This document shows positions 4,648 through 64,000 of a DNA stretch of 64,000 nucleotides, one piece after another. The translations under genes were made by a program, and so were the position numbers. The stretch lies in assembly GCF_020886775.1 (NCBI RefSeq), contig NZ_AP024525.1:2046001-2110000 (forward strand). Direction: 5' to 3'. The stretch comes from Sinomonas cyclohexanicum. Lineage in GTDB: Bacteria > Actinomycetota > Actinomycetes > Actinomycetales > Micrococcaceae. The notes beneath the pieces were generated by a model, which was given only the letters and a program-made list of their open reading frames with translations, was not told the origin of the DNA and made no database searches. Numbering within the stretch: position 1 is the first letter of the stretch; each line of letters opens with the position of its first letter.

Positions 4648-6765
4648 TCAGGCCGCGGCGGCGGCGATGGAGTCCTTGGCGGCGGCGGTGACCGCCTCGG
4701 CCGTGATGCCGAACTCGGTGAAGAGGGTCTTGTAGTCCGCGGAGGCCCCGTAGTGCTCGAGGCTGACGGTGCGGCCGGCGTCGCCGACGAACCGGTGCCA
4801 GGTCAGCGCCAGACCGGCCTCGACCGAGACGCGGGCCCTCACGGCCGCGGGCAGGACGGACTCGCGGTAGCCGGCGTCCTGGGCGTCGAACCACTCCACG
4901 CAGGGCATGGAGACCACGCGCGCGGCGATGCCCTCGGCCGCGAGGGCCTCCCGGGCGGCCACGGCGAGCTGGACCTCCGAGCCGGTGCCGATGAGGATCA
5001 CGTCCGGGGCCACGTCGTTCCCCTCGCGCTGGGCCTCGGCCAGGACATAGCCGCCCCGGGCGACCCCGGAGGCGTCGGCGAAGGCACCCTCGCCGCGCTC
5101 CCAGACAGGCAGGTTCTGGCGGGTCAGGACGATCCCGGCCGGGTTCTCCGTGTTCTCCAGGATCGCCTTCCACGCCTGGGCGGTCTCGTTCGCGTCACAG
5201 GGGCGCACCACGTCCAGGTGGGGGATCGCGCGCAGGGAGGCGAGCTGCTCGACCGGCTGGTGGGTCGGGCCGTCCTCGCCCAGGCCGATCGAGTCGTGCG
5301 TCCACACGTACGTGGACGGGATGCCCATCAGCGCCGAGAGGCGGATGGCGGGGCGCTGGTAGTCACTGAAGATCAGGAACGTGCCGGAGAACGCCCGGGT
5401 CTTCCCGCCCAGGGTGATGCCGTTCACGATCGCGGCCGCGGCGTGCTCGCGGATGCCGAAGTGCAGCACCCGTCCGTACGGATTTCCCTTCCACGCCGCG
5501 GTCGAGCGGGAGGCCGGGATGAACGAGGGCGAGCCCTCGATGGTGGTGTTGTTCGACTCGGCCAGGTCCGCGGACCCGCCCCACAGCTCCGGCAGGACCG
5601 GGCCGATCGCGTTCAGGACCTTGCCCGAGGCGGCCCGGGTCGAGACGTCCTTCCCGGCGGGGAACTCCGGCAGGGACTCCTCCCAGCCCGCCGGCAGGCG
5701 GCGGGCCTCGATGCGCTCGTGCAGGGCCGCGGCCTCCGGGTTGGCCGCCTTCCACGCGTCGAAGGACTCCTGCCAGGCGGCCTTGGCCTCCTCGCCGCGC
5801 CCGATGGCCCCGCGGGTGTGCGCCAGGACCTCCGGGTCCACGACGAAGGACTTCTCCGGGTCGAAGCCCAGGACCTCCTTCAGGGCCGCGACCTCCTCCG
5901 CGCCCAGGGCCGAGCCGTGGATCTTGCCCGTGTTCTGCTTGGTCGGGGACGGCCAGCCGATGACCGTGCGCAGCGAGATGATCGAGGGCCGGCTAGTCTC
6001 GGCCTTCGCCGCCACCAGTGCGTCCCAGAGCTCGGGCACGTCCTCGGCGTACTCACCGGTCTTGGTCCAGTCCACCCGCTGGGTGTGCCAGCCGTACGCC
6101 TCGTAGCGCTTGAGGACGTCCTCGGTGAAGGCCACGTCCGTGTCGTCCTCGATCGAGATGTGGTTCTCGTCGTAGATCACCACGAGGTTGCCCAGCTCCT
6201 GGTGCCCGGCCAGCGAGGACGCCTCCGAGGTCACGCCCTCCTGCAGGTCCCCGTCCGAGGCGATCACCCACACCGTGTGGTCGAACGGGGACGTGCCCGG
6301 CTCGGCCTGCGGGTCGTACAGGCCCCGCTCGCGCCGCTGGGAGTACGCGAATCCGACCGAGGAGGCCAGGCCCTGCCCCAGCGGGCCCGTGGTGATCTCC
6401 ACGCCCTTGGTGTGCCTGTACTCCGGATGCCCCGGAGTCAGCGAGCCCCACGTCCGCAGCGCCTCAAGATCCGAAAGCTCCAGCCCGTACCCGGCCAGGA
6501 ACAGCTGGATGTACAGCGTCAGGGACGAATGCCCCGGGGAGAGGATGAACCGGTCCCGCCCGATCCACGCCGGATCCGCCGGATCATGGCGCATCAGCTT
6601 CTGGAACAGCAGGTACGCCGCCGGCGCCAGGCTCATCGCCGTACCGGGGTGGCCATTGCCCACCTTCTGCACTGCATCGGCCGCGAGCACCCGGACCGTG
6701 TCCACAGCCTTGCGGTCCACATCAGTCCAGGTCAGTTCTTGCACATCCACAGCAGGCACGTACAC
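4648..6765 (-). CDS. tkt: Transketolase
   Basis: Thiamine-diphosphate enzyme moving two-carbon ketol units in the non-oxidative pentose phosphate pathway. About 705 aa with all three domains: the N-terminal PP domain with [28 protein letters not shown] and the GDGDLQEG-like ThDP/Mg motif (here ASDGDLQEG); the Pyr domain with [18 protein letters not shown] and [14 protein letters not shown]; and a C-terminal domain with [13 protein letters not shown] place the start at a GTG at 6765, preceded by GAGAGGGG five bases upstream; an open frame continues to 6906 but is not conserved-looking. First gene of the minus-strand operon. Confidence 0.94.
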
Positions 6766-7175
6766 CGGCCCCTCTCCATTGCTGACGGTCAGCAGCGTCC
6801 TACGGGGCACGGGAATGGTGGGCCCTGCATCGCATCCTGCCAGCCGTTCACCATCGAAACGATTTGTCTGGGTTTCTCTACCCGCTCTCGCGCACTGCAA
6901 GCACAACGACGCAGGCTGGCACCCAGCTCACATACTAGCCACGGCGCCGCGGCGGGGTGGAGGGCTTTGCCAAAAATTCCGCAGTGTGAATGCCCAGTCT
7001 TAATATCGAGTGCTTGTGCGGGCATCCGCATACCGTCAATGCGCCACGCGAAGAGCCGTGGTGCCACGGGACACTCCCCGTCCGGCATCCGGTACCCGAT
7101 GCGCGGCGCGGGTATCATGGAGGCGGCTCCCGTGCACCCGGAGCCGGACACACCGAGTAGAAGAGTCGCGCATCC
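6766..7175. other. Divergent tkt/ctaB intergenic region (410 bp)
   Basis: Non-coding stretch between the divergent tkt operon and ctaB, so promoters for both must lie here. A TATCAT hexamer at 7113-7118 could be a -10 for ctaB, but no convincing -35 accompanies it. I see no strong hairpin, riboswitch fold or tRNA. The part around 6900-7010 is less GC-rich than the flanking genes, as promoter regions often are here. Confidence 0.5.
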
Positions 7176-8123
7176 GTGAGCACAGCAGACGCACCCGCCG
7201 CAGTCCCGTCCAGGCCAGCCAAGCTCGGCCTGCGCCGCAAGATCAAGGCGTACGTCGCCCTCACGAAGCCGCGCATCATCGAGCTCCTCCTCGTGAGCAC
7301 GCTGCCGACCATGATCTACGCAGAGCGCGGCTTCCCGTCCATCGGGCTCATGATCGCCACGCTTGTGGGCGGGGCGTTCGCGGCCGGGAGCGCCGGCGCT
7401 TTCAACTGCTACATCGATCGGGACATCGACAGGCTCATGCGGCGCACGGAGAACCGTCCGCTCGTGACCGGCGAGGTGACTCCGCGTGAGGCACTCGTGT
7501 TCTCGTGGGTCCTCGGCATCGCCTCGCTGGCGATCCTCTGGTTCGGCGCGAACCCGCTCTCGGCCGTCCTCGGTGCCGCGGCGATCTTCTTCTACGTCGT
7601 GATCTACACGCTGATCCTCAAGCGCCGCACGGCCCAGAACATCGTGTGGGGCGGCGCCGCCGGCTGCTTCCCAGTGCTCATCGCGTGGTCCGCCGTCACG
7701 AACACTATCGAATGGCCGGCGGTCATCCTGTTCCTCGTCATCTTCCTGTGGACGCCGCCGCACTACTGGCCGCTGTCCATGCGCTACGGCGAGGACTACC
7801 GCAACGCCCACGTGCCGATGCTCGGCGCCATGGCCGGCGCGAAGATCGTGGCCGTCCAGGTGGTCCTCTACGCCTGGGCGATGGTCATCGCCTCCCTCCT
7901 GATGGTTCCCCTCGGCCACGCGGGGTGGGTCTACACCGTCGCTGCTGTGGGAGTCGGCGGCTGGTTCCTCTACGAGTCCCACGCACTGTACGGCCGCGCG
8001 CAGCGCGAGGAGATCGAGGACAAGAAGGCGATGAAGGTCTTCCACGGTTCGATCAGCTACCTCACGGTCCTCTTCCTGGCCCTCGCTGTCGATCCGTTCG
8101 TGGGGTCGCCGCTCTTCGGCTGA
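7176..8123 (+). CDS. ctaB: Protohaem IX farnesyltransferase (haem O synthase)
   Basis: UbiA-superfamily membrane prenyltransferase that adds a farnesyl tail to haem B, giving haem O for cytochrome oxidase. 315 aa, multiple membrane helices, with the first Asp-rich motif [15 protein letters not shown] and the ENRPLVTGE stretch. The second polar loop contains [21 protein letters not shown], typical of CtaB. Starts with GTG at 7176 and has a weak ribosome-binding site. The haem A synthase gene ctaA is convergent immediately downstream, and tkt lies divergently upstream, a common arrangement in Actinobacteria. Confidence 0.95.
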
Positions 8124-8154
8124 GAACGCACGGCATCGGCCGAGAAGGCAGAAC

Positions 8155-8201
8155 ACAGAGGGAGGGCCCTGCGGCATCACGCCGCAGGGCCCTCCCTCTG
8201 T
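8155..8201. terminator. Strong bidirectional hairpin between ctaB and ctaA
   Basis: Perfect 21-bp inverted repeat (8155-8175 and 8181-8201) with a five-base ATCAC loop, sitting between convergent ctaB and ctaA. Arms contain GAGGGAGGGCCCTGC. No long T tract, as usual for high-GC terminators. Confidence 0.85.
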
Positions 8202-8297
8202 CTGTCCCGTTCTGTGTGTCCGTTGTTCTCTGCTGTGCCTCACCGGTTCCCGCCTGCGCGGGCCCGTCGCCTGCGCGGGGCCGGTCGCCTGCGGCGA

Positions 8298-9236
8298 CTA
8301 CGCCGTGGGGCTGTACCGCGCGACGTCGGCCGCGTTCACCGCAGCAGCCACGAGCAGCGCCGAGACGAGCATGTGAGCGGCGACCAGCAGCGCCGGGATG
8401 CCCGTGTAGTACTGCGTGATGCCGATCGCGGCCTGCAGAACGGTCAGGACCAGGAGGAGGACCACGCCGCTGCGGAAGGTCCCCGGGATGCGGCGGGTGA
8501 GGGTCACGACGACGGCGAAGAGTGCGCCGAAGGCGACCAGATATGCCGGGACGGCGTGGATGTGCGAGAAGAGGTCCCAGTCGAGGCCGTTGCGGGGCGC
8601 GTTGGCGTCGCCCGCATGTGGCCCCGCTCCGGTCACGACGACGCCGAGCACCACTGCGGCGATGGCCGCCGCTGTGGTGACGAGCATCGTGGGCGCCATC
8701 GAGCTCGGCAGCGCGGGGTAGGTCCGGTCCATGAATCGGCCGGCACGACCGTAAGCGCGGTTGACCAGGAGCATCGAGAGGACCACGAGGGCCATCGAGA
8801 CGAGGAAGTGCAGTCCCACGACCCACGGATTCAGCTGGGTGAGCACCGTGATCCCGCCGATGACTGCCTGCGCCGGCACGCTCGCGAGGAGGCCGACCGC
8901 GAGCCAGAACAGGTCCTTGCGCTCCTTGCGGAGGTTCCAGAGCATGACGAGCATGATCAGGGCCACGGCGGTGAGCGCGAACGTGAGGAGCCGGTTGCCG
9001 AACTCGATGATCCCGTGGACGCCCATCTCGGGCGTGGTGGTGAGGGAGCCGGCCGTGCAGCGCGGCCATGTGGGGCAGCCGAGCCCCGAGGAGGTCAGGC
9101 GCACCGCGCCGCCCGTGAGGATGAGCACGATCTGGCCGATGAGCGAGGCGATCGCCATGGCACGGATGCGCCCGTCTACCACCTTGGGCAGCCGAGTGGT
9201 GAGGCGGGAGAAGCGCGTGAGCGAAGTGTCTGTCAT
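8298..9236 (-). CDS. ctaA: Haem A synthase (COX15/CtaA family)
   Basis: Membrane enzyme that oxidises the C8 methyl of haem O to the formyl of haem A. 312 aa with about eight membrane helices in two repeats. Seen: LTGGAVRLTSSGLGCPTWPRC with the conserved Cys pair region, an EFGNRLLTF helix (His replaced near the Glu, as in several actinobacterial forms), VVGLHFLVSM and a second-half LFSHIHAVPAYL plus VAAHML histidines. ATG at 9236 follows the ABC permease stop by four bases, so it is probably cotranscribed with the exporter upstream. Acts together with ctaB in cytochrome aa3 biogenesis. Confidence 0.93.
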   Translation of the reverse strand: MTDTSLTRFSRLTTRLPKVVDGRIRAMAIASLIGQIVLILTGGAVRLTSSGLGCPTWPRCTAGSLTTTPEMGVHGIIEFGNRLLTFALTAVALIMLVMLWNLRKERKDLFWLAVGLLASVPAQAVIGGITVLTQLNPWVVGLHFLVSMALVVLSMLLVNRAYGRAGRFMDRTYPALPSSMAPTMLVTTAAAIAAVVLGVVVTGAGPHAGDANAPRNGLDWDLFSHIHAVPAYLVAFGALFAVVVTLTRRIPGTFRSGVVLLLVLTVLQAAIGITQYYTGIPALLVAAHMLVSALLVAAAVNAADVARYSPTA

Positions 9237-59066: not shown

Positions 59067-59292
59067 TCAGATCTCGAGCTTCGCCAAGTCCTTCACCCAC
59101 TCTGGCGTCTCAAGGCCCAGGCGCTTGTCAGTGGTCACGCGGAGGCGGGCCGCAAGGATCTGCTCGCGGAGCTCATCCTTCGTCATGTGGACGACACGGG
59201 GCTTCGCCCCGTCCTTCGGTGCCGCCCTCGGGGGAATGATCATCGTCATCCTGGCCCTCGCTCTCTGCATCGCTGCTTCCATTGTTCTCGAT
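59067..59292 (-). pseudogene. Decayed small gene, copy 1
   Basis: C-terminal part reads APKDGAKPRVVHMTKDEL, then LRVTTDKRLGLETPEW and ends KDLAKLEI with TGA at 59067-59069. It aligns with copy 2 at 60290-60508 over the whole length. Relative to copy 2, the start ATG is ATC (59292-59290) and one extra base near 59240 shifts the frame, since the upstream part (IENNGSSDAESEGQDDDD) is in another frame. An in-frame ATG at 59249 could still yield a 60-aa product, so a shortened gene is not excluded. Function unknown; charged, cytoplasmic. Confidence 0.65.
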
Positions 59293-59421
59293 GATGATTT
59301 GGGCGTCCAGATTGTGCTCGGCGGCGCGGAGCCAGGAACGCCACGTTCGGGCCACAATCCGGACCTCCTCCGTGGAGGGAAGAAGTTCTTCGGCGCTCCG
59401 ATCCTCTCGCCCCGCTTCACG

Positions 59422-59730
59422 GTGCCGTCACAGGCGGTCTCGCTGCTCCTCGTAGGGCCAGCCCTGTTCCTGTCATGGATGGCGCGCGCCCCCGAACACC
59501 GCGCGCTGGCAGTCATGCTGCTGCCGCTCAGGCTGATGCTCATCGCGTGCGCCGGGCTACTGCTCACGGCCGGCATCGGCGTTGGAGTCCCGCTCGAGCT
59601 GTGGTGGTGGGACCTTCTCTGGCTCGTGGTCGTGCCCGTCGCAGTGGCGAACCTCCTCGGGCTTGTCCTGTACCTCGTGAACGCGCGGCGGATAGCCAGG
59701 TCCCTGTGGAGATGGGCCCGCTCACAGTAG
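59422..59730 (+). CDS. Small membrane protein or remnant, start uncertain
   Basis: About 102 aa from GTG 59422 with three likely membrane helices (AVSLLLVGPALFLSWMA; LRLMLIACAGLLLTAGIGV; LWLVVVPVAVANLLGLVLYL) and a basic tail RRIARSLWRWARSQ. No Shine-Dalgarno is visible. The frame is open back to 59059, but that part is antisense to the small pseudogene and not convincing. It may be the 3' end of a truncated membrane gene. I do not recognise the family. Confidence 0.4.
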   Translation: MPSQAVSLLLVGPALFLSWMARAPEHRALAVMLLPLRLMLIACAGLLLTAGIGVGVPLELWWWDLLWLVVVPVAVANLLGLVLYLVNARRIARSLWRWARSQ

Positions 59731-59753
59731 ACTCGGGGCTGAAGGAGGTCGCC

Positions 59754-59978
59754 ATGGCACTGAATCGCAAGAAGATCCGCCGTCACGAATCACTGCGCCG
59801 GTCGGTCTTGTCCGATGCCCGAATCGACCTCGGCGCCGGTTCACTCATCGGCAAGAACAGCGGATTGAGCCGAGCCCAAGCTGACAAGGGCATGCAGACG
59901 ATCCTGGCCCGTATCGGCGGCATGGGCGCGCAGCCGGGTGGAGCCAAGGCTCCGAGCCCCCGCGCGGCAGCCTCCTGA
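59754..59978 (+). CDS. Small basic hypothetical protein
   Basis: 74 aa: MALNRKKIRRHESLRRSVLS, then DARIDLGAGSLIGKNSGLSRAQADKGMQ and an Ala/Gly/Pro tail. Very good ribosome-binding site (AAGGAGGTC) before ATG 59754 and a T-tailed hairpin just after, so it looks like a real expressed gene. Basic N-terminus, no membrane segment. Family not recognised. Confidence 0.65.
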   Translation: MALNRKKIRRHESLRRSVLSDARIDLGAGSLIGKNSGLSRAQADKGMQTILARIGGMGAQPGGAKAPSPRAAAS

Positions 59979-60004
59979 GCTGACGCCGACAGCCGGAAAC
60001 GCCA

Positions 60005-60031
60005 AGGGACCAGCCTGAGGCTGGTCCCTTT
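60005..60031 (+). terminator. Rho-independent terminator
   Basis: 12-bp perfect stem (AAGGGACCAGCC with its complement), a TGA loop and a short T-rich tail, 26 bases after the small gene stop. Lower GC than the other hairpins in the window. Confidence 0.85.
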
Positions 60032-60087
60032 CATTTGCGCGAGGGGGGTAAGGGTGGTCAGGCAGGTCCGCAGTGCTGGCAGGTGAC

Positions 60088-60229
60088 GCACGACGGCGTT
60101 TACTCATCATGGTGCCCATCGTGACCTTAGCCGTGGGGGCCAGCGGCGTCCGCCGCGTACGGGACTTCTAGAGGCAAGGAAGTCGATGCCCCGGTCGGGT
60201 GACGCACGACGGCGCATGGTCGCCGTGGC
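60088..60229. repeat. Two eroded GCACGACGGCG units
   Basis: GCACGACGGCG at 60088-60098 has no matching right arm nearby. At 60204-60229 the same arm is followed, after CATGGT, by the damaged right arm CGCCGTGGC. Both are preceded by GTGA, as in the intact copy at 59018 (CTGA). The 311-bp gene-free stretch 59979-60289 holds these, the terminator and nothing else I can identify. Confidence 0.6.
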
Positions 60230-60289
60230 ACCGCTGGCCCGTTGGGAGGGGGCGGCCACCGCCTATCCACCACGAGTGACGTCCCCTGG

Positions 60290-60508
60290 GCAGATTTCGA
60301 GCTCGTCGAGGCCCCTGGCCCGCTGCGGCGTCTCGATCCCGAGGCGTTTGTCCGTGATGATGCGGAGGCGTGCGGCAGCGATTTGCACGCGCAACTATTC
60401 CTTGGACCAGTGCACGACGCGGGGCTTCGAGCCTTCCTTGGGGGCTTCCGGGCCGGAGGGATCATCGCCATCGCGCGCCTCCTCTGTATGGCTCTTGTTG
60501 TTCGACAT
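60290..60508 (-). pseudogene. Decayed small gene, copy 2
   Basis: From ATG 60508: MSNNKSHTEEARDGDDPSG, then PEAPKEGSKPRVVHWSKE, then an in-frame TAG (60397-60395) where copy 1 has GAG (Glu). Past the stop the same frame continues to match copy 1: LRVQIAAARLRIITDKRLG, IETPQ and ending ELEI. The original stop is also changed (TGC for TGA). So one nonsense change cuts a roughly 72-aa protein to 37 aa. A weak GAGGA precedes the ATG. Confidence 0.7.
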
Positions 60509-60718: not shown

Positions 60719-63295
60719 TCATCTTTCCGCTCGCCGAGGGGAAGCCACGCTGTCAGTACGAGATATTTCCACGATGGGCTCCCACCGATCGGGCCATTTC
60801 ACGGGCTCAAGCGCAACGAGATTAGCCAGCTCAGAACTGAAGAAGGAACCTATTGCCAGCAGATCGTACCCCACTTCAAGAACAGTCTCGGCAGTCCATT
60901 CCCGAACTCGGTCATCTGCGTAAAGCAACGCCGAAAAATCCGCGCTATTAGAGAGATCCCAGTCGATTGTCCAAAAATCGGTATCTCGATAATACATACG
61001 CCGCGCCATTATGCGACGCAGACGCGGAAGCAGCTTGGTGCGGACTCCCCTCTTCACCGCCGAGTCAAGCACTTCTGCTAAGTTCCTAGTTTCGGCTGGG
61101 ATGAGGTCGCGCTTTTCCCAGCCGCTCAGCATATCTAGCTCGCCCGTGGTCTTGGCGGCCCAGATCAAAGCGGCGGCAGCCGGATCTTCCACCCTCGCCA
61201 GTACCGGTGCCAGGAGAAGCCTGGAACTCTCGCGAAGTTCAGCGCTCCGTCTCCAGCTTGCCAAGGCTAGGATGCTCGAAATACGGGAAGCGCCGGAGGA
61301 CTTAAGTCCAAGCCGCAGCTTGTCCTGAATGAGCTCCCGAGACTCTCTATCGGACTCGGCCGCAGCACGGAGGGCCTGATGAAGACCGGAGGAATGGACG
61401 CCCGGTGGAAGGTCAAGGAAGTCAAGCCCTAACTTAATGAGGCGCCGCGAGAACTTTGGGGCCGTATGAGCGAGACCGTCTGCCAAGATATCAACAGACA
61501 GAGACGGGCCTGTTCCCGCGGCTCGAATAATACGTGACTCGCTACTCAAGCCTTCAACTAGACCCACCACTCCTTCGCGCATAGATTGTCTATCGTCAAA
61601 TGCGCGGCCCGCTGCAAGCAACCACGAATTGCGCCAGTGGGCGGACTTTAGGGTGACGGAAAGTGGCAGGAACGCTTCACTCTCACCATCGTAGAAGAAG
61701 AACGCTGCGGCCATAAACTCCTGTAGGCTTCGAATCTCGAATCCAAAATGATCGGCCACCCGCGGTACTAGCAGCACAAGCCTTTCAGTCGCAACCTTCA
61801 TCAGATCGCGTGACATTAGATATGCCCGCTGGTGATCGTATTGCTCGTCAACTTTAAAGCGACGATAAATCATTTCTGCGAGTTCGTCGCGGCTTAGCAG
61901 CGCGTCCGCATACCCTACCTGCTCAGCTCTCTGATGCAGTGTGAACCCAGCTTTCTGGTGAATATACTCGATACTCCTTCTTTGGGAGACGAAGAGATCG
62001 CCGAGATCGCCCAACTCTTTATTTGCTTCGCGGTCATATATTACTTCGAAATATGATGAGAATAGTTGGTGCCGACTCTGAGGAAGCTTCTGGCGCTTTG
62101 CCATCAGGATCGTCATTATCGTAAGCTGCAGCGGTGTCGTCATGAGTTTAGCGGTCGCTGCGCTCATGAACGCGCTGTTGAGGTGGCCTCCAATCCTTCT
62201 TACAGCGTCAGGATCACTGCCATAACGCACGTTCGTAAGTTGATTGACGTATGCCCGAGCTCGTGACTGGTCCAACGGCATGAGTTGGAGGTGTTGGTAT
62301 ACGTCCGGGCTCATTTCGTCCGTGTACCCGTGTGGTCTTGTAGTCGCCACAATGAATACGTCGTACCCTTCTGCACGACAGTCTGTGAGAAAATTCTCCA
62401 GTGTGGTCACGATTCGATCGCGTGCAAACATCGATGGCACTTCGTCAAGCCCGTCCAAGACGAGCAACCATGGCCATGTCCGTAGCCACTCTTTTAGGCC
62501 GGCCGGATCCACCGAGCTGTCCTGGCCGGTTTCGTTTATTTTCTTGGCAATGAATTTTAGAAGGCTATCGGCACCGCCGTGGACGATTTCGTCGCTGAAT
62601 TCAGAGAGCCTAAGGTGAATGGGCCAGCGTTTGTTTCTTGGCTCGGGCACTCTCAGAGTATCGAATATATGGGCGTCAAGCGACTTGATGAGCTCTTTCT
62701 GTCTGAAATCGAGCGCATTCGGGTCCCGGTCGCGCAAGATGGAGATGCGGTACGCCTGACAAATCAGCTGACTTAGCGTTGATTTCCCTTGCCCAGGGCC
62801 CCCCACAATCACCACATGGGACTTGTCCTCCACTGACTGCTGGGCTCGAACGGGGTGATCTGCTTTGGGGATTATCCATGAAATGGCCGAGACCAAAGGT
62901 TGCTGTGCTGGGTCCAGATTGGGGTCTTGGGCGCCCCTAACAGTCGCTGGCAGATCGATTGCTACTTTGGAAAGCTGCAACCGCTCTGAGGTTTCCCCAC
63001 CCGATTGATCGAGCTTTATCCACTGCTCATGGTTGAGGCACTTGAGAGTGTACCCTTCGATGATCGATTTTAGAGCACGTCTGCTCTTGAGAAGATTCTC
63101 TTGTATTTCATGCAGAATGTCGCCCGATGTCAAGAATCCCGCATATGTGGTGCGTACTGCCGCATTCTGGTCAAGTAGGGTGGTCAGATGGTTGGCGTCC
63201 CATATATCCCAGCCCTTGACCCTCAGTGGTCGTAGTGCCTCTGCTATCTCCCGCCGGACAGTATCGTAGCCTCCAGAGGACGCATTGCCGCTTAA
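60719..63295 (-). pseudogene. NACHT-type NTPase, probable antiphage defence gene, 5' end lost to IS insertion
   Basis: 858 codons remain. N-terminal remnant: WDIWDANHLTTLLDQNAAVR then TYAGFLTSGDIL, which resembles the end of a nuclease-like (PD-(D/E)XK) domain found in front of NACHT in defence proteins. NACHT: Walker A VGGPGQGKST (near 62790), Walker B LLVLDGLDEVP (near 62455), VATTRPHGYT, TTPLQLTIMTILM, and IRSLQEFMAAAFFF. A long helical C-terminal region follows with no obvious sensor repeat. There is no usable start codon downstream of 63295; the open frame runs on into the IS by chance. Base composition is visibly lower in GC than the rest of the window, pointing to horizontal origin. 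Confidence 0.8.
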
Positions 63296-64000
63296 CCCGG
63301 ATCGTTCACGGGGCGGCGGCCTGATCGGCGCGTAGAAACACCGAAGTGCCCTCTGACCGGGGGAAACTTGGACTTGTCTAAGGTCCCAGGTTGCCCAGCA
63401 GAAAGCACTCGGTAGGTGAAGCGTACTCTGTGGTCGTCGGGTCTGTCCGTGTCCGCTGACGGTGTCGGCGTGGTGGCCCACTCGGGTGGCGTCGCGTTGC
63501 GTCTGATGGCGGACCGGTCCGGGCTCACGGCTGGACTGTCCAAGGCGTTGGCACGCCGTTCCTTCTCCCCGATCCACGACCGCGGCCGGGTGCTGGCCGA
63601 CGTGGCGGTGATGATCGCCGGTGGCGGGGAGGCGATCGCGGACATCGATGTCCTCAGGCATCAGGCTGACGTGCTCGGCCCGGTCGCGTCGCCCCCGACC
63701 GTCTGGAGGGCGCTGGACGAGGTCACCCCGTCGCGGCTGAAGCGGATCCAGGCCGCCCGGGCACGCGCGCGCCGGCACGTGTGGGCCCAGTTCCCCGCCG
63801 GCGTGCCGGCCAGCCGGGCCGCGGGCGCCGACCTCGGCAAGGACGTGGTGGTCCTGGACGTGGATGCCACGATCGTGGTGGCCCATTCCGAGAAGGAGCA
63901 GGCCTCCCCGACATTCAAGAAGACCTTCGGCTTCCACCCGATCGGGGTCTGGTGCGACAACACCTCCGAGTTCCTCGCGGGCATGCTGCGCACCGGCAAG
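63296..64000 (+). mobile_element. IS1380-family insertion sequence (5' part)
   Basis: The coding content is an IS1380-type transposase. The left edge is placed after TTAA at 63292-63295, where NACHT coding sequence gives way to high-GC sequence starting CCCGGATCGTTCACGG. The edge is an inference: the right end, terminal repeat and target duplication lie outside the window. About 120 bases of leader precede the transposase. Confidence 0.7.
63416..64000 (+). CDS. IS1380-family DDE transposase (N-terminal 195 codons)
   Basis: GTG at 63416 opens a frame to the window end without a stop. Seen: RTLWSSGLSVSADGVGVVAHSGGVALR, ADVAVMIAGGGEAIADIDVLR, and VVVLDVDATIVVAHSEKE, whose first Asp pair is the DDE catalytic start of this family, then TFGFHPIGVWCDNT. 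High GC, unlike the NACHT gene it interrupts. No strong ribosome-binding site. Active copies elsewhere in the genome cannot be judged. Confidence 0.88.
   Translation, partial: MKRTLWSSGLSVSADGVGVVAHSGGVALRLMADRSGLTAGLSKALARRSFSPIHDRGRVLADVAVMIAGGGEAIADIDVLRHQADVLGPVASPPTVWRALDEVTPSRLKRIQAARARARRHVWAQFPAGVPASRAAGADLGKDVVVLDVDATIVVAHSEKEQASPTFKKTFGFHPIGVWCDNTSEFLAGMLRTGK

What the first reader, a model, noticed from the sequence alone, without database searches (positions are those of the whole stretch)
60719..64000. NACHT defence-type NTPase cut by an IS1380 element
The gene keeps NACHT and a long C-terminal region plus the tail of an N-terminal nuclease-like domain. The coding match stops at TTAA (63292-63295), where IS1380 sequence begins, and no start codon remains. 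The missing domain may lie beyond the other end of the IS. The C-terminal region (roughly 400 residues after NACHT) carries no sensor repeat that I recognise, so an intact homologue could be an undescribed bacterial NLR type.
Basis: partly seen in the sequence, partly recalled or inferred. Interest (0 to 1): 0.72.

Follow-up and report, generated by a model that had tools for sequence, protein, structure and literature searches.

The report
Transposon-split nuclease–NACHT phage-defence gene
A bacterial immune-sensor gene that joins a DNA-cutting domain to an NLR-like switch has recently been cut in two by a jumping gene; the missing half lies just beyond the insert, at the end of a restriction-enzyme operon whose last position holds different genes in some related bacteria.

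Summary
Window 60719-63291 (-) is the 3' part of a NACHT gene (31.4 bits, cut-off 26.7). It ends at TTAA 63292-63295, where a 1,669-bp IS1380-family element starts. Past the window the element ends in a second TTAA and the missing 5' part (about 120 codons) follows in phase. Four genomic copies of the element are identical, so the insertion looks recent. Seventeen uninterrupted homologous ORFs span the junction. The N-terminal module looks like an Mrr-type PD-(D/E)xK nuclease, and the insert lies inside it.

Intact members are nuclease–NACHT–helical proteins (909-995 aa in 12 actinobacterial ORFs) with a fast-evolving C-terminus (median 20% identity; nuclease 42, NACHT 37, HD/WHD 39). No PADLOC or NCBIfam model scanned names them. 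They resemble antiphage bNACHT proteins: a new member of a known kind.

New here: the gene starts three nucleotides after the hsdR stop of a type I restriction operon. In a congener and two family members the place after the related hsdR holds other low-GC genes (unknown 637-aa protein, Gabija, SoFic). Antiphage function and sensing are inferred, not shown.

The parts
60719..63291 (-). 3' part of the interrupted nuclease-NACHT gene (residues 1-857 of the remnant as numbered here are read from 63292)
   Evidence: open frame; Pfam NACHT; 32% identity over 770 aa to an intact homologue
63158..63292 (-). tail of the N-terminal nuclease module (remnant residues 1 to about 45)
   Evidence: six genomes share only residues 1 to about 181-187 of the intact homologue with ORFs of other length; alignment across the junction
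62240..62815 (-). NACHT NTPase domain
   Evidence: PF05729, 31.4 bits, residues 160-351
62777..62803 (-). Walker A motif, residues 164-172
   Evidence: position; aligned across homologues; motif name recalled
62438..62467 (-). Walker B segment, residues 276-285
   Evidence: position; aligned; motif name recalled
60722..61582 (-). fast-evolving helical C-terminal region (residues 571-857), putative sensor
   Evidence: all-helical prediction, last about 110 residues under pLDDT 50; median 20% identity to 12 homologues
63292..63295 (.). TTAA target-site duplication, copy at the left end of the IS
   Evidence: second copy at G000 C1 2110965-2110968
63296..64000 (+). IS1380-family insertion element, part inside the window (whole element G000 C1 2109296-2110964, 1,669 bp)
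   Evidence: four identical genomic copies with 4-bp duplications
63416..64000 (+). IS1380 transposase gene, part inside the window (464 aa in full, L008 3416-4810)
   Evidence: PF13701 84.5 bits, NF033539 E 3.9e-31; full ORF

Best explanation
The feature is a single gene for an NLR-like protein: an N-terminal Mrr-type PD-(D/E)xK DNase, a central NACHT switch and an alpha-helical, fast-evolving C-terminal region that is probably the sensor. It was acquired horizontally into the end of a type I restriction-modification operon. Intact members most likely work like antiphage bNACHT proteins: a phage cue or a disturbed host process is sensed through the C-terminal region, the NACHT domain exchanges nucleotide and oligomerises, and the clustered nucleases cut DNA, stopping phage growth often at the cost of the cell. 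In this genome an IS1380-family element has recently jumped into the nuclease module, leaving the D...QxK catalytic part with an hsdR-coupled start on one side and the module's tail, the NACHT and the C-terminal region without a native start on the other. The gene is therefore most likely non-functional here. Shown here: anatomy, insertion, duplication, phase, intact relatives, operon position, foreign base composition. Inferred: antiphage function, sensing, oligomerisation, DNA cutting, loss of function.
For: NACHT over the Pfam cut-off. Second TTAA and the missing 5' coding part past the insert, in the same phase: 361 + 2,573 nt is a multiple of three, which chance gives one time in three. 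Both parts match the same proteins: of 16 plasmid records with the 5' part 13 also appear among the 20 listed records with the 3' part. Seventeen uninterrupted ORFs span the junction. Active-site columns D38, Q68 and K70 of the 5' part are the same in 16 of 16 aligned N-termini; the predicted order of helices and strands at the start of an intact relative fits the nuclease fold (fold order recalled). Weak nuclease matches: Mrr_cat in 2 of 16 (best E 0.016), PADLOC restriction-endonuclease models. Foldseek of both models is headed by NOD2, NLRC4 and NLRP3. C-terminus median 20% identical against 42/37/39% in nuclease, NACHT and HD/WHD. G+C 54.5-56% against 69.4% in hsdR and 69.7% in the window. 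Four identical IS copies. bNACHT25/32, with the same layout, need their nuclease for defence and degrade DNA on infection (passages of PMC12169576).
Against: No experiment on this family is known to me and none was run. Pfam does not call the 5' part (0 families), no solved structure matches the nuclease profile, and the NACHT domain is below the Pfam cut-off in several intact relatives (7 of 8 scanned). Both models are mediocre (mean pLDDT 68.6 and 75.3, alignments of 7 sequences), and the Foldseek overlays are loose (TM-scores mostly 0.2-0.4, rmsd 8-16). The linker (median 25%) is nearly as divergent as the C-terminus, and homologue pairs among themselves also have 20% at the C-terminus, so fast evolution there may be loose constraint rather than sensing. 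Only one genome of the species was available.
Confidence: 0.8

Rival explanations
1. The split gene still works in parts: the 5' piece is translated from its own start after hsdR as a short nuclease, or the 3' piece is expressed from a start or promoter in the IS as a nuclease-tail-NACHT-sensor protein, and the two act together or with other partners.
For: The 5' piece keeps its start three nucleotides after the hsdR stop and its active-site residues, in a 135-aa ORF. The antisense IS frame is open into the 3' piece (1,453-aa ORF). No stop or decay is seen in either piece.
Against: The insertion lies inside the nuclease module, which reaches to about residue 185, so the 5' piece lacks part of its fold. 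The remnant's first in-frame start is a TTG at residue 54. The IS is identical to three other copies, so lack of decay is explained by youth. Of the 17 junction-spanning relatives none is naturally split at this place; the two split relatives I saw (L058, L059) are broken elsewhere.
Confidence: 0.1
2. The gene is not a phage sensor but a partner of the type I restriction enzyme: like PrrC in the EcoprrI operon, it guards the Hsd complex and fires when a phage disables it.
For: Start three nucleotides after the hsdR stop, same strand. Other unrelated genes sit at the same place in relatives. PrrC is embedded in a type I operon and held latent by the enzyme (passage of PMC3874165).
Against: Of 31 other loci with relatives only one shows a match to a protein of this operon, a 31%-identical hsdM stretch (L050), so the partnership is not a property of the family. 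That test used only this operon's own proteins and flanks of 5-9 kb.
Confidence: 0.07
3. Not a defence gene: a NACHT or STAND regulator of some other cell process that merely rode in with a restriction operon.
For: No curated defence model names it; no phage test exists.
Against: Conserved nuclease residues, presence on plasmids and on a phage-like contig (L057), patchy spread (1 of 98 relatives; 14 of 394 genomes of the class at E 1e-30, six of them with the nuclease module only), foreign base composition and a defence neighbourhood.
Confidence: 0.08

Closest known systems
bNACHT25 / bNACHT32 (clade 6 bacterial NACHT proteins)
   Same: N-terminal PD-(D/E)XK nuclease, central NACHT, helical C-terminus, single gene (architecture from passages of PMC12169576).
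   Different: No NCH1-named domain was reported in the Pfam scans of this family, but I did not confirm that an NCH1 model is in that library. No direct sequence comparison was possible: the bNACHT25 sequence was not at hand.
AVAST (Avs) STAND NTPases
   Same: Nuclease-type effector, STAND NTPase and C-terminal sensor in one chain (layout recalled); Avs3 appears in the Foldseek list for the remnant (8dgc_B, rank 41, E 2e-3).
   Different: Half the length (977 codons against a 2,004-residue Avs3 chain); Avs models in PADLOC give at best a weak stretch in one of eight intact relatives (Avs3b, E 0.024).
PADLOC candidate PDC-S73 (752 aa)
   Same: Weak matches at the N-terminus and at the P-loop, E 4.3e-7 for the remnant and 2.6e-10 for the Rhodococcus ruber relative.
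   Different: Only short stretches match (about 40 and 30 residues); different length.
EruA (NF058535)
   Same: NACHT-region similarity (20.2 bits, residues 276-425).
   Different: Far below the curated cut-off of 1000 bits.
PrrC anticodon nuclease in the EcoprrI operon
   Same: An extra, potentially lethal defence gene inside a type I restriction-modification operon (passage of PMC3874165).
   Different: No sequence relation was found or sought beyond family scans; place in the operon differs (after hsdR here).
IS1380 family insertion sequences
   Same: DDE transposase, short inverted ends, 4-bp duplication.
   Different: No difference noted; nearest plasmid copies are about 73% identical.

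Membership tests
Bacterial NACHT (bNACHT, NLR-related) antiphage proteins | central NACHT module | tested here: met
   PF05729 over the gathering score in the window protein and in 1 of 8 intact relatives; the other seven are below it
Bacterial NACHT (bNACHT, NLR-related) antiphage proteins | N-terminal effector and C-terminal sensing region around the NACHT module | tested here: met
   nuclease-like 5' part with invariant D, Q and K; helical, divergent C-terminus; that it senses is inferred
Bacterial NACHT (bNACHT, NLR-related) antiphage proteins | protects against phage | not testable with these tools
   needs a phage challenge of an intact homologue
bNACHT clade 6 | PD-(D/E)XK DNase effector | tested here: inconclusive
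   conserved residues in 16 of 16 and weak Mrr_cat in 2 of 16; no match over a Pfam cut-off, no solved structure matched
bNACHT clade 6 | NCH1 C-terminal domain | tested here: inconclusive
   no NCH1-named family reported, but the presence of that model in the library was not confirmed (one guess, PF22726, proved to be NCAB2)
AVAST (Avs) | match to Avs models and Avs length | tested here: not met
   no Avs model for the remnant; one weak Avs3b stretch in 1 of 8 intact relatives; 977 codons
IS1380 insertion sequence | IS1380 transposase | tested here: met
   NF033539 E 3.9e-31 for the 195 aa inside the window; full 464-aa ORF
IS1380 insertion sequence | inverted ends and a 4-bp target duplication | tested here: met
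   TTAA, TTAA, TTAG, CTAG at the four copies; ends 15 of 21 alike
PrrC-like genes embedded in type I operons | gene inside an hsd operon | tested here: met
   starts three nucleotides after the hsdR stop, same strand; hsdR, hsdS, hsdM by Pfam and NCBIfam
PrrC-like genes embedded in type I operons | physical and functional tie to the Hsd enzyme, conserved with it | tested here: not met
   adjacency not conserved: 1 weak hsdM match among 31 other loci; physical tie not testable

The most novel reading that the evidence does not exclude
The last position of this actinobacterial type I restriction operon is a translationally coupled cargo slot into which unrelated second-line defence genes (nuclease-NACHT, Gabija, SoFic, an unknown 637-aa protein) are swapped, so that whatever sits there is produced with the restriction enzyme and acts, PrrC-like, when phages overcome restriction; the nuclease-NACHT family would then be one of its guards and the IS would have emptied the slot in this strain.
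Probability: 0.12. Interest if true: 0.75.

Novelty: new member of a known kind. Interest (0 to 1): 0.42.

Why it matters
It turns an apparent truncated NACHT gene into a dated loss event in a bacterial immune gene, with the missing half in hand. It also points to a compact, unnamed nuclease-NACHT family with intact members on plasmids, in actinobacterial genomes and on a phage-like contig that can be tested directly, and to a place in a type I restriction operon where different genes are exchanged between relatives, which offers a natural way to ask whether restriction operons carry back-up defences.

Tried and rejected
Rejected: an artefact or a gene that naturally begins at the remnant (17 ORFs span the junction). 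Rejected: an obligatory partnership with type I restriction (1 weak match in 31 other loci). Rejected: membership in AVAST. Led nowhere: single-protein scan of genome contigs (no relative); the 12-row alignment as query (no conserved stretch); PDB sequence search with the family (best E 0.0011, a designed or P-loop protein over 49 positions) and with the nuclease (none); a guess at the Pfam accession of NCH1 (it was NCAB2); paper search with loose terms (mostly unrelated). Kibby et al. 2023 and the Avs pattern-recognition paper are not held; they are known to me only through the citing passages and recall. The Actinoplanes relative L031 was left out of the structure alignments because part of it looks frame-shifted; L058 and L059 were left out because they are split. 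The hsdR-flank survey has no random control: ten ORFs of nine flanks were chosen by me for closeness, length or low G+C, and fifteen of the 24 flanks other than this genome's own were not scanned. The tree puts the window protein with the actinobacterial members (94/94), but on a long branch.
Full report
WHAT IS THERE. Window 60719-63292 (-) is an open frame of 857 residues with a NACHT domain at residues 160-351 (31.4 bits, cut-off 26.7). It meets TTAA at 63292-63295, and from 63296 an IS1380-family element runs off the window; its transposase starts at 63416 (+). The window is G000 C1 2046001-2110000 of a 4,413,566-bp genome in one contig. Reading on (L008 = G000 C1 2106001-2121000), the element is 1,669 bp, has imperfect inverted ends and is followed by a second TTAA. 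Three other copies in the genome have no mismatch to it over 1,669 bp and carry their own 4-bp duplications, TTAA, TTAG and CTAG. Identical copies point to recent transposition (inference).

THE MISSING HALF. Just past the second TTAA, on the same strand, lies the 5' coding part, L008 4965-5325 (-), about 120 codons starting with ATG. It is 49% identical over 117 aa to residues 3-112 of a 977-aa protein of the Streptomyces sp. SAT1 plasmid, and the remnant is 32% identical over 770 aa to the same protein from residue 120 on. The lengths of the two pieces with one TTAA add up to a multiple of three (2,934 nt, 978 codons including the stop); the pieces were not joined. Eleven plasmid ORFs, five genome-contig ORFs and one ORF on a phage-like contig, 17 in all, hold both parts without interruption (L012-L014, L016-L023, L026-L030, L057). 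An additional Rhodococcus erythropolis ORF (L015) spans the junction but ends after 740 aa.

THE NUCLEASE MODULE. In 16 aligned N-termini the columns of D38, R41, Q68 and K70 (numbering of the 5' part) are invariant, as expected of a PD-(D/E)xK nuclease with a QxK site (motif knowledge recalled). Library support is weak: Mrr_cat in 2 of 16 members, best E 0.016; restriction-endonuclease models of PADLOC at E 2.5e-5 for the 5' part; no Pfam family for the 5' part itself and no solved structure. In a class-wide search 14 of 394 genomes match the SAT1 protein at E 1e-30; six of them match only residues 1-3 to 181-187, in ORFs of 668 to 1,648 aa.

NACHT AND C-TERMINUS. AlphaFold2 models of the remnant (mean pLDDT 68.6, pTM 0.59) and of an intact relative, L026 (75.3, 0.66), rest on alignments of seven sequences. 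Foldseek against the PDB puts NOD2, NLRC4 and NLRP3 on top for both (best E 2.5e-9 and 1.8e-8), with loose overlays. After the NACHT region both models are almost wholly helical; the last 110 residues of the remnant are under pLDDT 50. Median identity of the window protein to 12 intact actinobacterial homologues is 42% in the nuclease, 25% in the linker, 37% in NACHT, 39% in the HD/WHD segment and 20% in the C-terminal 287 columns (segment limits set by me on the SAT1 protein). No Pfam family was found in the C-terminal region of the window protein.

SPREAD. Twenty-nine plasmid records match the remnant, none over 80% of its length; 16 match the 5' part. Of 98 genomes of genus, family and order only the own one matches. 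One of these, L057, has an intact 1,326-aa ORF beside phage-like genes, as judged by eye; two hold split copies. A tree of 17 proteins places the window protein among the actinobacterial members (94/94) on a long branch.

THE OPERON. Upstream on the same strand are hsdR, a DUF3800 gene, hsdS, hsdM and a 664-aa ORF without a family. The ATG of the interrupted gene follows the hsdR stop after three nucleotides, so co-translation is likely (inference). G+C is 54.5% (3' part), 56.0% (5' part) and 55.3% (DUF3800), against 69.4% (hsdR), 68.6% (hsdM) and 69.7% for the window. The congener G004 keeps the neighbourhood with a maoC-like gene at 86%, hsdR at 86%, hsdM at 92% and the 664-aa ORF at 75% identity, but has no match to either part of the NACHT gene or to DUF3800. 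In its place, overlapping the hsdR stop, is a 637-aa ORF of 54% G+C with no Pfam, PADLOC or PHROGs family. In the family member G018 a Gabija pair (GajA 738 bits, GajB 488.6 bits) begins 16 nt after hsdR; in G033 a SoFic gene (356.7 bits) begins 478 nt after it.

HOW GENERAL IS THE SLOT? I fetched 20 more hsdR 3' flanks and looked at 25 in all. Ten ORFs of nine flanks, picked by me, were scanned with PADLOC: six of the nine have a match, namely Gabija (L073), SoFic (L074), PDC-S02 (L104), a GajA on the opposite strand (L114), a DrmD-like helicase (L117) and a partial match to an RT-associated model (L112); three have none (L072, L108, L109). Fifteen flanks were not scanned, at least one flank begins with a housekeeping-like ORF (L110, by eye), and there is no control. 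Defence genes cluster in general, so this is a lead. On the other side, the NACHT family is not tied to type I restriction: with this operon's five proteins as queries, only one weak hsdM match turned up among 31 other loci.

HOW IT PROBABLY WORKS. Passages of PMC12169576 describe bNACHT25 and bNACHT32: PD-(D/E)XK nuclease, NACHT and NCH1 domain; the nuclease residue D48 is needed for protection, DNA is degraded on infection, and bNACHT25 senses through the host chaperone DnaJ. By analogy an intact member of the present family would sense infection through its C-terminal region, oligomerise through NACHT and cut DNA. Passages of PMC13092281 and PMC8195603 show that NACHT and nuclease combinations are common in defence. 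With the nuclease module cut and no native start for the rest, the copy in this genome is most likely dead.

NOVELTY. An IS in a defence gene is ordinary. The family is not named by the PADLOC, NCBIfam or Pfam models scanned, but its layout is known, so I file it as a new member of a known kind. In the paper library, searches listed no paper that I recognised as describing this family; Kibby et al. 2023 could not be read, so a place in one of its clades is open. The bold reading, a swap slot for back-up defence behind hsdR, has a precedent in PrrC (passage of PMC3874165) and is not excluded.

Noticed in passing
L072 7617-9530 (-) (unnamed congener G004): 637-aa low-G+C ORF overlapping the hsdR stop where this genome has the NACHT gene; CxxC pairs at the start and an RNAGSHG stretch that recalls the HEPN Rx4-6H motif (by eye); no Pfam, PADLOC or PHROGs family.
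   Followed up: partly
L008 8735-9475 (-) (off the window, G000 C1 2114735-2115475): DUF3800 gene (50.2 bits) of 55% G+C between hsdS and hsdR, without a match in the congener's operon.
   Followed up: partly
L008 12541-14535 (-): 664-aa ORF upstream of hsdM with no family in Pfam, PHROGs or NCBIfam, yet conserved in the related operons of G004 (75%), G033 (42%) and G028 (43% in part); its middle looks by eye like a degenerate HsdM-type methylase.
   Followed up: partly
window 59067-60471: Two ORF fragments on the - strand resemble each other (59% over 54 aa in the frame tested, window 60288-60449), as if a small gene was partly duplicated next to the NACHT gene.
   Followed up: no
G000 C1 2177556, 2377241 and 4269429: Three further copies of the IS1380 element identical to the one in the NACHT gene, with their own TSDs; what they interrupt was not examined.
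   Followed up: no
L057 5962-9942 (+): Intact 1,326-aa nuclease-NACHT gene on a contig of the viral collection beside phage-like structural genes (by eye): a possible prophage-borne defence gene.
   Followed up: partly
L058 and L059, about 6139-8635: Two related viral-collection contigs carry the same family broken into two ORFs.
   Followed up: no
   Followed up: partly
L073 7949-11456 (+): Complete Gabija pair (GajA, GajB) starting 16 nt after the hsdR stop of a related type I operon.
   Followed up: partly
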